Source: Sipunculus nudus
Taxonomy: Eukaryota > Annelida > Sipuncula > Golfingiida > Sipunculidae
DNA: 64,000 nucleotides
Assembly: GCA_026874595.1 (NCBI GenBank)
Contig: CM049313.1
Coordinates: forward strand, 72,410,659 to 72,474,658
Direction: 5' to 3'
Shown: positions 11,801-23,800 of the stretch, piece after piece
Layout: every line of letters begins with the position of its first letter
Position numbering within the stretch: the stretch's first letter is position 1
Notes under the pieces: model-generated
The model's input: the letters and a program-made list of their open reading frames with translations, nothing else
Database searches by the model: none
What the model was told of the DNA's origin: nothing
Position numbers and translations under genes: made by a program

Positions 11801-14800
11801 TGGGTCACAAGGTCAAAGGTCAAAAAATTAGTTTCTGGATGATAATTCCTGCTTTTATTGATGTATAGATTTCAAACTTGACTTGTATATGTCCCATAGG
11901 AAAAGCAAGACCTGAATTGATTTTGGGGTCATGAGGTCAAAGGTCAAGGTCACAGGACCAACATCTTCAAAAAGATTGTGGATTGATAAATGGAAGAAAC
12001 AATAATTGCTTGCCAAGTGTCAGTATATGCTGCTAAAAATGGGGGCCTATTCTTAAAGGGGGGGGGCTACCATGTCTGGAGATACTCTGGCACCTGCGGT
12101 TTCAAGAAATTTCTAGTTTTGAATATTTCTTTTGACAGACCACTCTGATGGCTGGTTATGGCAGACCCTAATTAAAAGAGAATGGCAAGCATTAACTGTT
12201 AACAGAGATCTCATTTTTTGCATGAAAATCATTAAGAAAAAAATTGAGAGCATAGAACTGATGAAGTGATCTGTTAACTAACCTACAAAAAGACCACTTG
12301 AAAATACAAATTTGTCCACAAAAAACTTGAAAATACCTTAAAAAGTGATTTAAAAAAATGTTGGAACCCTGTCCCAGTTGCCATGGTTATACACTTCTTA
12401 TTACAAACAGAAGCTACCTGTCTGACAGTATCATTATGCCAGTTTATTTGACAGGATTTTGGAGACATGAGAATCTGCCAGATATATCACGGACTGATTA
12501 TACATGTGCTATGACGAGTTAAAGGCTTGCTCAGCAGTGTACAGTGGTACTTGCTTCAGTTAGCAATGTGTTGTATGTTCCATGTTTGTGGTTGACTATC
12601 AGAGATTCCATCTGCTGTTGCCCATTTATGTAATGCATAGGCCCATCAGATTGCTTATAGAGTTATGCAAATTTGAAATATGAAATTGATGTGCTTAAAG
12701 CCATTGAATTGTGAAACTCTTTAAAAACATAGTCTTGAAATTTGAATTTGCCACAGATTGGAAATTCTGTCATCACTTTTCTCAATTTTTCATGAAACCA
12801 TAATATAAAGTGTATGTAGAAGGTGGCTTCATTACTTAATTACAAAACTTGATTCCATTAAGTATGAATTATATGGGAATAATCATTTAATGTTACTCAA
12901 AATTTAATTACTTTTCTTCAATTCATTTACAATTTGGGGATCAATGATGATAATATATCTTGGACATGGAAACATTGTATCAAAAGTTATCTGGTGAGGT
13001 GCTTAATTTTGTTACAATGGTTTTTAAGAAGTCTTTGAAAATTCTTGAATTTGAAACTTTTGATATGTATTCAATCTGTTTTAATGATGTCGGGTTCAAG
13101 AAACCTGTCTTCATGATAGTTCCCTTTTTCAGTTTTTTAGAACATACTTGCAACCCTTCATGATTAACAGCTTCAGAATCCTTTAAACAAATTTTGATTT
13201 AATTGAAGTTAAGATGTGGGTATCTCAAACCTTTCTCAGCCCTATGTATTGTTACTAGTTCTAAAGCCTAAGTTCTTCAAAGCTTGTCTTTCTTTTCTGA
13301 GCTAAGCTGATGTCTGAAATTCAGATAAATACATCCATGACATCTTTATCAGTTGCAGTTGAATCTTGGAAATCACACATGCTGACATCTTGCCTTCAGT
13401 TTTTCTTTTTTTACAAATTTTAATTTTTGTTCTTTTCAAATTGAAGGATAAATCTTCTGTTACAAAATTGTTCAGAAACTGTTATATATTTCTAGTAATA
13501 ATTCCACATGAAAAATTTCACTGAAGTAATTTGCAAACTTGGCATGAAAGCAACTGTTTAAGATATGAATGGAAATTTTGAAATGCACATGTGAATATTT
13601 TTCATATAATATTACATGTTCCAATTTAATAGGTAATTTTAAAAATTGTACATTGTGCAGTGTGATTTAAAGATTTGGATTTTGTAAACTGAATACATCT
13701 CCAATTATGTGTTCATTTTGAAGGTTGCAGAGTGACCTTAACAGTAAGCCTGCAATGAAAAAAACTCTCTGGCAGACCAGAGGTCTAGCCCAGTGTGTTG
13801 AAGACCCATATTGTCTTTCAGAGTGAAACCTTGTGTGTTGAAAGTTTTAAATTAACCCTCATGGTAAAATTAAAATAAGGGATGTGTGTTGAATGTCAGA
13901 TTGTGACCTTCAGGGTGAAACCAGGTGAACTGCAGGTCTGACTTTGACCCTCAAGGTGAAACTGGTGTCTTAAAGGTCATACTTTGACCTTCAAGGTGAT
14001 TCTTGGTGTGTTGAAGGTCAGAAGTTGACCTTCAAATGATGTCTGGTGTGTTGAAGGTCAGACAGTGACCATGATTTTGTGAAGCCTAGGTTTATGTGTA
14101 CAGTGTACGTTTGATCTCTTTGTTTTCACGCTAGTTGTTGTTTATAGGCTGTCCTGGGAATAATGAAGTCATTACAGGGGATGGCCCTCTCCCCATGGCC
14201 ATATTTGAACTCCTGGAGTACATTGTGAACGAGGTAATTGGTGACATGCATTAATTGGGTTTCGTCATGGTGTGTAGACATTGCAGCGTGGCTTCAGTGG
14301 AGACACTTGCTGGCATGCTCCGCATGGTTGGAGGTCCTCCTATGAGACCACTCTAACCCCAAAAATTTATAAATTTAAATATATTAAAAATTCTGCACAT
14401 CTTATTTGTAATACTCAACAATTTCTCTTGGAAATTTGTCTTAAGATCTGATGTAAGAAGGTTGTATGTAATACTGTCATATTTCAGTGTTTAGATTTTG
14501 GACAAGTATAAGATCTAGAAGAAATTAAAAGAAGCAAGAAACTGATCCAGTCCATGTCAGAAGTGTATGGATGTATTTTTTAGCTCAGCTGACTTTCAGT
14601 CATGCTGAGCTATAGCGATCAATCTTTGTCTGTCGTCCATCTGTCTGTTAAACACGCACAAATCCTAACCGCTGGACCTAGAATCTTGTAACTTGACATT
14701 CTGAGAGGTCCGTGAAAAATCTCCGTGGAAACCAGAAATTAAGTCTCTGTTACCCATATCCTTTGAGCTATTGGGTCCCAAAGTACCCCCCAGAATAGTA

Positions 14801-20800: not shown

Positions 20801-23800
20801 GATTTGTGGTCAGCTCAACTATAAGGAACCCCTGCTGCAGTTGGTTATCTCTCCCATGTGGGATGTGTTTTTATATTCTGATCTGTAATAGTGATGCCTA
20901 TGTTTTCTGTGTTATTGGGTGGGGCAGGAGTCTGTGTGGCTTGTTTGTGCTGACAGTATTGTTGATATTGTGGCTTCTCTCTGCCATGTGTCTGTCAGTT
21001 TCAGATTAATAGCCTGGTTTAAATTTACTTCATTTGTGCACATGTCAGAAACTGTTGCGTGATGAGGATTATCTGTGAGCCTGAGGCATCCTGCGAAGAC
21101 AGTGACATCTTGTATGACATATGGCATCAATCATGTGACACTGACCTCATGGAAGACCTTTGACTCAGCAGTGCCCAGAGTTCTTTGGACAGTGAGCAGC
21201 CCAGTGAATGTTGATATATTCTGACCATTATTTGCATAATTTATGCGCTCTTGACCTGCACCTGACCTACTGGCACTCCACCTTGATGGATGTGATGTGG
21301 GACCTCTGCTGTTGTTGTGTTTGCTTGACTCTTGCCTGTCTTGCTTTCAGGCGGCCGCAACTCCTATGTACCCCCAGGAGGTGATGGGCCGCGACCAATG
21401 GCAATATTTGAGCTTTTAGATTATATTGTGAATGAGGTATGTGCACTGTCTTGCCTTCTTAGTTTTAGTAAAATCTTTGTGCATGTCCCCATATATCAAC
21501 TCTTTTTCCTCCTCTCTCTTCAGTCTATGTTTGCATGTTGTTATTATTAGCAGTTTTAGTTGTTCTAACCTAGGCCGCCCTGTCTGCCCAACTTAACAAA
21601 GGCAGATGGGGGTTGAGCTTGAGTCAATAATTTTAAAATTACACCAAGCGGCTCAGCCAATGAACCATGTTCGGTCAGTGGCACTGGTAATGTATCTGCG
21701 AGCACAAGGACATGTTTCTGTTTATCAAAAGGTAAAATTTTACCTGGTTTATTAGAAAATAATCATATAATGAGTAGATATCTGCAGACTTTTTTTAGTC
21801 AATGGTAAATAATGCCCTACTTGATAAGCCATGACTTAGGAAATTTCAATGAGACTTTATATACCTGGTGTCATGTTAAATCAGTTTATATATAACGTGA
21901 TGCTATCAGTCAATATTATGATGATACTATGCTGGAAATAATGATTTTGTTGTCTTTCTGACAGGACTTATTTTTATTAATTAGTGATGTCATTATCTGT
22001 TGCAGCCACCTCCCACACTTCCTAGTCAGTACTTCTCTTCAGAATTCCATGAACTGGTCAACAGTTGGTGAGTCATCCTTTCTTGTCATACCTAAGGTGG
22101 CATTCCATTAAAAGGAATATGGGGTACATATATGCAGGACATAAGCGTATGTGACATATTTTAATCACTCATTGCAGCATTTGAAACTCATACGCATGGT
22201 AACAGTCAGAGGAATTCCAAACTTTGACATCAGTGATAGGGATTTCCTCTCACTGATGACTTCTCTTCTTCAGCCCTTTCCAATATCCCCAAGGTTTTCT
22301 GCATATGCACCGCATTCGTATACATATTTATTAGTGATGTGCTGATGATCGATTATAATCAATGATCTGTGGGGTTAGTGCAGACAATATGATGATCATA
22401 ATCAGTTGCAAATTTTGCCGTAACTTAGGCTTTATTATTAGGAAATGTGTGCTTTTATATACATTGTGCAAGCTAACTAGAGAAAAGTTTATGTTTACTA
22501 AGTCTAAATTCCTAATCAACTATATTGAAATGTATGCTGTAGAATTATGACATTATTAGCCTGAATGTATGCCGACATATATGCTGAGATGATATACTGG
22601 TCTATCAATGGTCTGAAAGTTCATACTTCTAAACAACAGATTATTTCTGATTATTAATCAGTAGAGGTCAGCTGATTTTATTGATGATCCATCATTAAAT
22701 TACTACAGATTCCCAACATGTATTGCTACAATCACAGGCATCAAATTTTTCAGCTGCACGTGCACATATATACTGCATGCGTTTATGTACTGCATACAGG
22801 TTTATGGAATGCTAACTTTATCTGGTGTAATAAGAAATATCTTTTCAGTATACTTTGTCTCCAGATTTCATTAACATCTAAATGTCCTCATAATTTTGTG
22901 GCCCTCAGTTGTGCCCCAAACAGAAACACACATAGGGGATGAAGTTTATCCAAACATCTTGGGAGCATCTAGTTTTTTAACTGATTGATAAGACGTACTT
23001 CAAACTTAAATAAGAGATATTTGTTTCTCCAGAAAAAGCTGTATACCATTTATAATTGTACAGTCAGAACAGTCTTCTGTATGAGAGCATGTTAGAACCT
23101 TTAACGTATCAGTTAGAGTAGTTTTAGCCTGTTACCTGGGATTTTAAAATAGTGCAAACTACCAGATGACTACAGGTAAGTGTTATGGAATTTGTCCTTT
23201 ATCTAAGCACATGTATATACAACCCTTTACTTCCTTTACAGCTTGAAGTCCAACCCTCAGGATCGTGCTGACCTAGCCAGTTTAATGGTGAGTTCTGTAA
23301 AAAATGAGTAATACAACCGTGTTGGATATCTTGGTCTCAGGCTTTCCTCACACCTAACTTGCACAAGGTTATCCCTTTACAGTGTGTCCCTTGGACTCCT
23401 TCAGGAGTTTCTCTTTACAGTGTCTCTGGTTTCTCATCTCAGTGAGTCATTTGATTTCATTATTTCCCAGTACCTCCTGCTATCTCAAGGCCTACCAGTC
23501 CTATTTTATAGGACTTTTATAGTACACATTTATGGTACACATTCTGAGCTGTAGAATATTTTTAAAGATTCTGATACATTTCCAAGACTTTGGAAACCCA
23601 GGAAACATAATGATATGCATTAAACTTTTCTTGCCATGTAATGATGGTATTTTATCAACAATTATGAGTAGAAGATTATGATAATTACTTGTTTCTCTGA
23701 TTGTCAGTATCTGAGGACATATTAAAGCAGTTGACCACTTAATTTCATGTGTAAAACTTTTGTATAATACATGGTTTCATTTAGGTATACTAAAATGTGT

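What the first reader, a model, noticed from the sequence alone, without database searches (positions are those of the whole stretch)
14148..21436. Mutually exclusive helix-G exons in a MEK1/2 gene
Two exons 7.1 kb apart are each 86 nt, each start in phase 1 and end in phase 0, and encode the same 29 positions of the kinase: 16 residues of the proline-rich insert, then 13 of helix G. The helix part has 8 nucleotide differences but only one amino-acid change (Glu/Asp), while the linker parts ([15 protein letters not shown] versus [15 protein letters not shown]) have diverged fully. This pattern fits an old exon duplication kept for two splice forms. Mutually exclusive exon pairs are well known in JNK and p38, but I know of none in MEK. 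In mammals the insert and helix G neighbourhood affects scaffold, Raf and ERK contacts, so the isoforms could differ in partner choice or feedback phosphorylation.
Basis: partly seen in the sequence, partly recalled or inferred. Interest (0 to 1): 0.92.

Follow-up and report, generated by a model that had tools for sequence, protein, structure and literature searches.

The report
Twin alternative exons in MEK gene
A single animal MEK gene, the kinase that switches on ERK, carries two interchangeable copies of one small exon that keep the same kinase helix but change the loop next to it, so one gene could make two kinds of MEK; no RNA evidence was available to prove it.

Summary
Exons A (14148-14233) and B (21351-21436) are both 86 nt, share phases, and sit between the same neighbours of one MEK1/2 gene. 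Either one gives a full kinase ending at the same stop; both or neither shifts the frame to an early stop. The shared 19-codon core (GDGP-x-P plus helix G) has 14 nucleotide differences, 12 at third positions, and 2 amino-acid changes; none of 200,000 neutral simulations was as conserved. So A is not a long-decayed copy. No other MEK-like locus was found, though the genome searches would miss a lone diverged small exon. Best explanation: mutually exclusive exons, exclusivity enforced by reading frame. U2/U12 incompatibility, steric blocking and long intron pairing find no support. A and B have the shortest (11 nt) and longest (144 nt) AG-free zones of 11 acceptors, suggesting regulated splicing. 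Neither exon has an S/T-P site, weakening the ERK-feedback idea. No transcripts or relatives could be searched; the species is unknown. New member of a known kind; my literature listings showed no such pair in MEK.

The parts
2754..2805 (+). MEK exon 5 (52 nt)
   Evidence: joined protein matches human MEK1 in the PDB
3949..4073 (+). MEK exon 6 (125 nt), catalytic loop and DFG
6938..7127 (+). MEK exon 7 (190 nt), C-lobe up to the start of the insert; upstream partner of A or B
14148..14233 (+). Alternative exon A (86 nt): insert CPGNNEVIT plus core [21 protein letters not shown] exclusion zone 11 nt
21351..21436 (+). Alternative exon B (86 nt): insert GRNSYVPPG plus core [19 protein letters not shown]; keeps the Asp found in human MEK1 and fly Dsor1; AG exclusion zone 144 nt
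21205..21348 (+). 144-nt AG-free stretch before exon B acceptor, with branch-point-like TGAC motifs at -127, -97, -86 and a conventional one at -23
21480..21537 (+). Two TGCATG words (Rbfox-type motif, recalled) at +44 and +96 of exon B; weak lead
22006..22067 (+). MEK exon 9 (62 nt), downstream partner of A or B
23242..23287 (+). MEK exon 10 (46 nt)
24196..24294 (+). MEK exon 11 (99 nt coding, TGA stop at end)

Best explanation
One MEK1/2 gene carries an anciently duplicated exon 8, and each mature mRNA takes either copy A or copy B. Shown: both copies fit the same slot in the same frame, and both keep the helix-G protein sequence while their synonymous sites are saturated. Inferred: the spliceosome picks one copy per transcript. 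If both or neither are taken, the reading frame shifts and a stop codon follows within exon B or exon 9 (shown), so those mRNAs would be lost or make truncated protein (inferred). B, with a strong pyrimidine tract and the conserved Asp, is probably the default form; A, with a competing AG 13 nt upstream of its acceptor, is probably the regulated one (inferred). The two kinases keep the same RAF/KSR-facing helix but display a different nine-residue stretch of the flexible insert just before it, so they would most likely differ in insert-dependent regulation (for example phosphorylation of the Ser-Tyr present only in B, or a partner protein) rather than in core catalysis or RAF docking (inferred).
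For: Either-exon forms open to the same TGA; both-in and both-out shifted with early stops. Core 19 codons: 14 nt differences, 1/1/12 by codon position, 2 aa changes, 0 of 200,000 neutral simulations at each of three transition biases; helix plus Pro, 14 codons: 9 differences, 1 aa change, pS 0.96, pN 0.03, 8 of 200,000 simulations. The gene is otherwise a normal MEK1/2 (E 2e-169 to human MEK1). Of 81 matches to the MEK protein in the assembly, those above 58% identity are all exons of this locus. No further copy is convincing in 124 kb around the gene (next best tblastn E 0.28), and between the compared flanks (13000-15500, 20200-22500) clear DNA likeness covers only 14176-14236/21379-21439. 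No N in the window. AG exclusion zones of 11 (A) and 144 nt (B) are the extremes of 11 acceptors, and only 1 of 866 AG-AG gaps in 7128-22005 reaches 140; both long and very short zones are enriched among alternative exons in human data (PMC1431707, passages). 377 of 629 human MXE clusters likewise contain exons of length not divisible by three (PMC5740500, passages).
Against: No transcript, RNA-seq or proteome data could be searched, and no related species. No exclusivity device other than reading frame was found: all sites are GT-AG and U2-like by eye, the exons are 7.1 kb apart (no steric block), and inverted repeats of 18 nt or more with a 12-nt exact seed are only an AT run (weaker pairings were not tested). 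A conventional branch-point candidate at -23 of exon B means the distant ones may be unused; the cited paper itself attributes only one-half to one-fifth of zones of 100 nt or more to distant branch points. The TGCATG pair is weak (218 of 29,160 windows of 101 nt hold two). The first 29 nt of A and B are no more alike than shuffles, so whole-exon duplication is not proven for that half. The assembly-wide searches did not recover A with B or B with A, so they cannot exclude another lone, equally diverged exon copy elsewhere.
Confidence: 0.82

Rival explanations
1. Exon A is a dead or dying duplicate, no longer spliced into mRNA; B is the only exon in use.
For: A has the poorer acceptor (TAG 13 nt upstream, AG exclusion zone 11), and its insert half has no detectable likeness to B. 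No RNA evidence of use.
Against: 12 of 14 core differences are synonymous and 0 of 200,000 neutral simulations match at each of three transition biases; ORF, GT-AG sites, length and phase are intact. Loss could only be very recent.
Confidence: 0.09
2. Exon A acts as a poison exon: it is included together with B (or both are skipped) to trigger nonsense-mediated decay and tune MEK level.
For: Both-in and both-out frames end in early stops.
Against: A poison exon has no need to keep helix-G protein sequence and reading phase; A keeps both.
Confidence: 0.05
3. Assembly artefact: A or B comes from a second MEK locus or haplotype wrongly placed in this intron.
For: The assembly is of mixed content (bacterial-type contigs of over 1 Mb), so errors are conceivable.
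Against: The larger MEK exons occur at one locus only; A and B regions each match one place at near identity; no gaps in the window; the compared flanking introns are unrelated, so they are not haplotype copies.
Confidence: 0.03

Closest known systems
JNK (MAPK8/9) mutually exclusive exons 6a/6b
   Same: Alternative exon pair of a MAPK-cascade kinase; one copy per mRNA; isoforms differ by tissue (PMC8329584, passages); that they encode the same kinase-domain stretch is recalled
   Different: A MAP kinase, not a MAP2K; exclusivity there comes from interlocked U12/U2 sites, not seen here (GT-AG, U2-like by eye)
Human mutually exclusive exon clusters with non-3n length (PMC5740500, passages)
   Same: [quoted passage not shown] typical architecture
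   Different: 'map2k' does not occur in that paper's main text; supplementary tables not seen
MEK1b (MAP2K1 splice form)
   Same: Alternative splicing of MEK1 that changes its specificity (PMC8699841, passages)
   Different: MEK1b deletes 26 residues in subdomain 5; here an exon is swapped in the insert and helix G
Vertebrate MEK1 versus MEK2 paralogues
   Same: Two MEK forms that differ in the Pro-rich insert (PMC8699841, passages)
   Different: There, two genes that also differ at both ends; here, one gene with a local exon swap
OGDH exons 4a/4b with distant branch points
   Same: Ancient duplicated exon pair; long AG exclusion zone before the downstream copy (PMC7969005, passages)
   Different: OGDH relies on a short intervening intron; here it is 7.1 kb

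Membership tests
Mutually exclusive exon pair | Neighbouring exons of equal length and phase in the same gene slot | tested here: met
   86 nt each, same phases; no further copy found between them
Mutually exclusive exon pair | Sequence homology of the two exons | tested here: met
   19-codon core 89% identical in protein; 5' 29 nt not above chance
Mutually exclusive exon pair | Both copies intact (ORF, splice sites) and under coding constraint | tested here: met
Mutually exclusive exon pair | A device that prevents joint inclusion | tested here: inconclusive
   Frame shift and early stop on joint inclusion met; U12/U2 incompatibility, short intron and long intron pairing not found
Mutually exclusive exon pair | Exactly one copy in each transcript | not testable with these tools
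   no transcript data held
MEK1/2 (MAP2K1/2) | Overall sequence and MEK-type insert before helix G | tested here: met
   PDB best hits are human MEK1 (2e-169), MEK2 (3e-155), fly Dsor1 (2e-152); MKK6 far lower (7e-63)
MEK1/2 (MAP2K1/2) | HRDVKP catalytic loop, DFG, activation-loop S-x-A-x-S (motifs recalled) | tested here: met
   HRDVKPSN, CDFGVSG, SMANS in the joined protein
Distant-branch-point exon (exon B) | AG exclusion zone of 100 nt or more | tested here: met
   144 nt; human rate 838 of 67,334 introns (PMC1431707, passages)
Distant-branch-point exon (exon B) | Branch point actually used at a distance | not testable with these tools
   candidates at -86, -97, -127 but also a conventional one at -23

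The most novel reading that the evidence does not exclude
This lineage made its MEK1/MEK2-like pair by duplicating one exon instead of the whole gene. A single MEK gene yields two kinases that are identical except in the insert and one helix residue, the region in which vertebrate MEK1 and MEK2 also differ, with only form B carrying a phosphorylatable Ser-Tyr there. The choice would be regulated by tissue and set the strength or duration of ERK signalling.
Probability: 0.35. Interest if true: 0.75.

Novelty: new member of a known kind. Interest (0 to 1): 0.57.

Why it matters
MEK1/2 is among the most studied kinases, and helix G and the adjoining insert form its contact and regulation zone. 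A natural exon swap in exactly this spot separates the constrained part (helix) from the free part (insert) and offers a ready-made isoform pair for asking what the insert does. It would also be a case of MEK diversification by exon rather than gene duplication.

Tried and rejected
Intron base-pairing (docking/selector type) was sought as inverted repeats of 18 nt or more (12-nt exact seed) in 7000-22100 and gave only an AT run, 17 overlapping pairs. A third exon copy in 124 kb was sought by tblastn with short words: beyond A and B the best E was 0.28. A spliced retrocopy that would reveal mRNA structure was sought in the whole assembly: none among 81 matches (111 of 187 first-look candidates were scored, and the table did not list exon A itself or small exons e5 and e10, so small pieces can be missed). 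A Rbfox-type TGCATG cluster after exon B was counted and kept only as a weak lead. Structure prediction was not used because the spliced protein is not a contiguous translation. Literature searches for MEK with mutually exclusive exons gave no report of such a pair among the rows listed: 2 of 2; 20 of 96; 20 of 434; 20 of 591; 12 of 15; 15 of 1,190. There I saw listings; of the papers cited I saw passages only. Subscription papers are mostly not held.

Full report
The window lies in an unnamed animal assembly of 1.43 Gb in 153 contigs. The plus strand carries the 3' part of a MEK1/2 gene. I read exons 2-4 from the upstream flank and exons 5-11 in the window, and fixed the boundaries by GT-AG and frame. 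Negative positions count back from window base 1. The exons are: e2 -5291..-5066, e3 -4245..-4099, e4 -1524..-1447, e5 2754-2805, e6 3949-4073, e7 6938-7127, A 14148-14233, B 21351-21436, e9 22006-22067, e10 23242-23287, e11 24196-24294 ending in TGA. Exon 1 was not found or sought further. The joined B-form protein matches human MEK1 over 367 residues at E 2e-169, and fly Dsor1 at 2e-152, with MKK6 far behind at 7e-63.

Observation. Exons A and B are both 86 nt, with identical phases. Taking A alone or B alone gives an open frame to the same stop. Taking both gives a stop within exon B, taking neither a stop within exon 9. Both have GT-AG sites that look U2-type by eye.

Selection. In the 19-codon core from GDGP to the last Glu, A and B differ at 14 nucleotides, 1/1/12 over codon positions, with 2 amino-acid changes. 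With the same number of random changes, 0 of 200,000 simulations kept the protein so well, at each of three transition biases. For the Pro plus 13 helix codons, pS is 0.96 and pN 0.03 (Nei-Gojobori, tiny site numbers, so dS is simply saturated). The copies are thus old, and A stayed under coding constraint for most of its life. Old age predicts that relatives share it; that was not testable here. The first 9 whole codons have no detectable likeness (10 of the first 29 nt identical; 2,204 of 20,000 shuffles do as well).

Copy number. A six-frame search with the B-form protein gave 81 matches; those at 82-97% identity are all exons of this locus, and the others are at 58% or less (111 of 187 candidates were scored). 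The regions of A and B each match one place, themselves, at DNA level. These searches have a limit that must be told: one search did not list exon A, and the DNA searches with A and with B did not find each other, so they show that there is no second MEK gene with recognisable large exons and no near-identical copy of A or B, but not that no other lone diverged exon exists. Within 124 kb around the gene a sensitive tblastn finds A and B and nothing else convincing (next best E 0.28). There is no N in the window. Between the compared flanks (13000-15500 and 20200-22500) clear DNA likeness covers only 14176-14236 against 21379-21439; the next matches are 11-19 nt at E 0.2 or worse. This argues against a recent or artefactual duplication.

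What the exons encode. From the alignment to full-length human MEK1, the core Met is residue 308 and the changed helix residue is D315. B keeps this Asp, as do human MEK1 and Dsor1; A has Glu. The helix residues named at the human MEK1-BRAF interface, L314, I317 and V318 (PMC12022096, passages), are identical in A and B, so both forms should dock RAF/KSR alike. The insert is variable in evolution: Dsor1 has almost none of it. In human MEK1, T292 in the insert is phosphorylated by ERK, and S298 by PAK1, which increases the interaction with ERK (PMC10605237, passages). Residues 246-310 of the joined B-form fragment, which include the end of exon 7, hold no S/T-P site; exon A's peptide has none by eye. 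B has Arg-Asn-Ser-Tyr; A has no Ser or Tyr and one Thr in its insert. An ERK-feedback difference is thus not supported; a PAK-like or other difference at the Ser of B is possible but is inference.

How exclusivity could work. U12/U2 incompatibility as in JNK (PMC8329584, passages) is not seen. Steric blocking is not possible across 7.1 kb. No intronic inverted repeats of 18 nt or more were found apart from AT (weaker pairings untested). Frame shift with loss of wrong products remains, as in the 60% of human clusters that contain non-3n exons (PMC5740500, passages). The acceptors hint at regulation: the AG exclusion zones of the 11 acceptors are 26, 38, 41, 27, 51, 42, 11 (A), 144 (B), 19, 32 and 57 nt. 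In human introns 838 of 67,334 reach 100 nt, of which the authors ascribe one-half to one-fifth to distant branch points; such exons are more often alternative, and very short zones are also enriched among cassette exons (PMC1431707, passages). Against this, exon B has a conventional branch-point-like motif at -23 as well as distant ones at -86, -97 and -127. Two TGCATG words follow exon B at +44 and +96; 218 of 29,160 101-nt windows of the gene have two, so this is only a lead.

Comparison with the known. It works like, and by the sequence tests done here fits, a mutually exclusive exon pair; the transcript test could not be done. MEK1 splice variation known to me from passages is MEK1b, a 26-residue deletion (PMC8699841). 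My literature searches (listings only, row counts in Tried and rejected) showed no mutually exclusive pair in MEK1/2. The boldest reading not excluded is that this animal has a splice-encoded counterpart of the MEK1/MEK2 pair.

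Noticed in passing
G000 contigs C60, C61, C62, C66, C72, C74, C75, C89: The animal assembly also holds nine near-identical bacterial-type COX1 genes (577-578 aa) on small contigs, two of them 2.04 Mb apart on C89; the protein is at most 58% identical to the 80 GTDB-collection loci kept. This could be several strain assemblies of an unknown symbiont or cobiont.
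   Followed up: partly
G000:C123:1-10000 (L040): A further contig (112 kb) that looks bacterial: nucleoside-metabolism genes and a COX1-family protein, read by eye from the ORF list; no mitochondrial COX1 was recognised among the 11 hits.
   Followed up: partly
window 10329-11729, 14656-15452, 15630-17053, 17286-18134, 20552-20787: The introns around A and B are rich in tandem arrays with periods 289, 333, 280, 340 and 34 nt; another of period 40 (13884-14070) ends 77 nt before exon A.
   Followed up: no
window 26363-27220, minus strand: A 285-aa open frame rich in Ser, Lys and Pro with a coiled-coil-like start, probably the last exon of a neighbouring gene convergent with MEK (read by eye).
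   Followed up: no
window 21480-21537: Two TGCATG words within about 100 nt downstream of exon B; exon A has two GCATG words at +80 and +89.
   Followed up: partly
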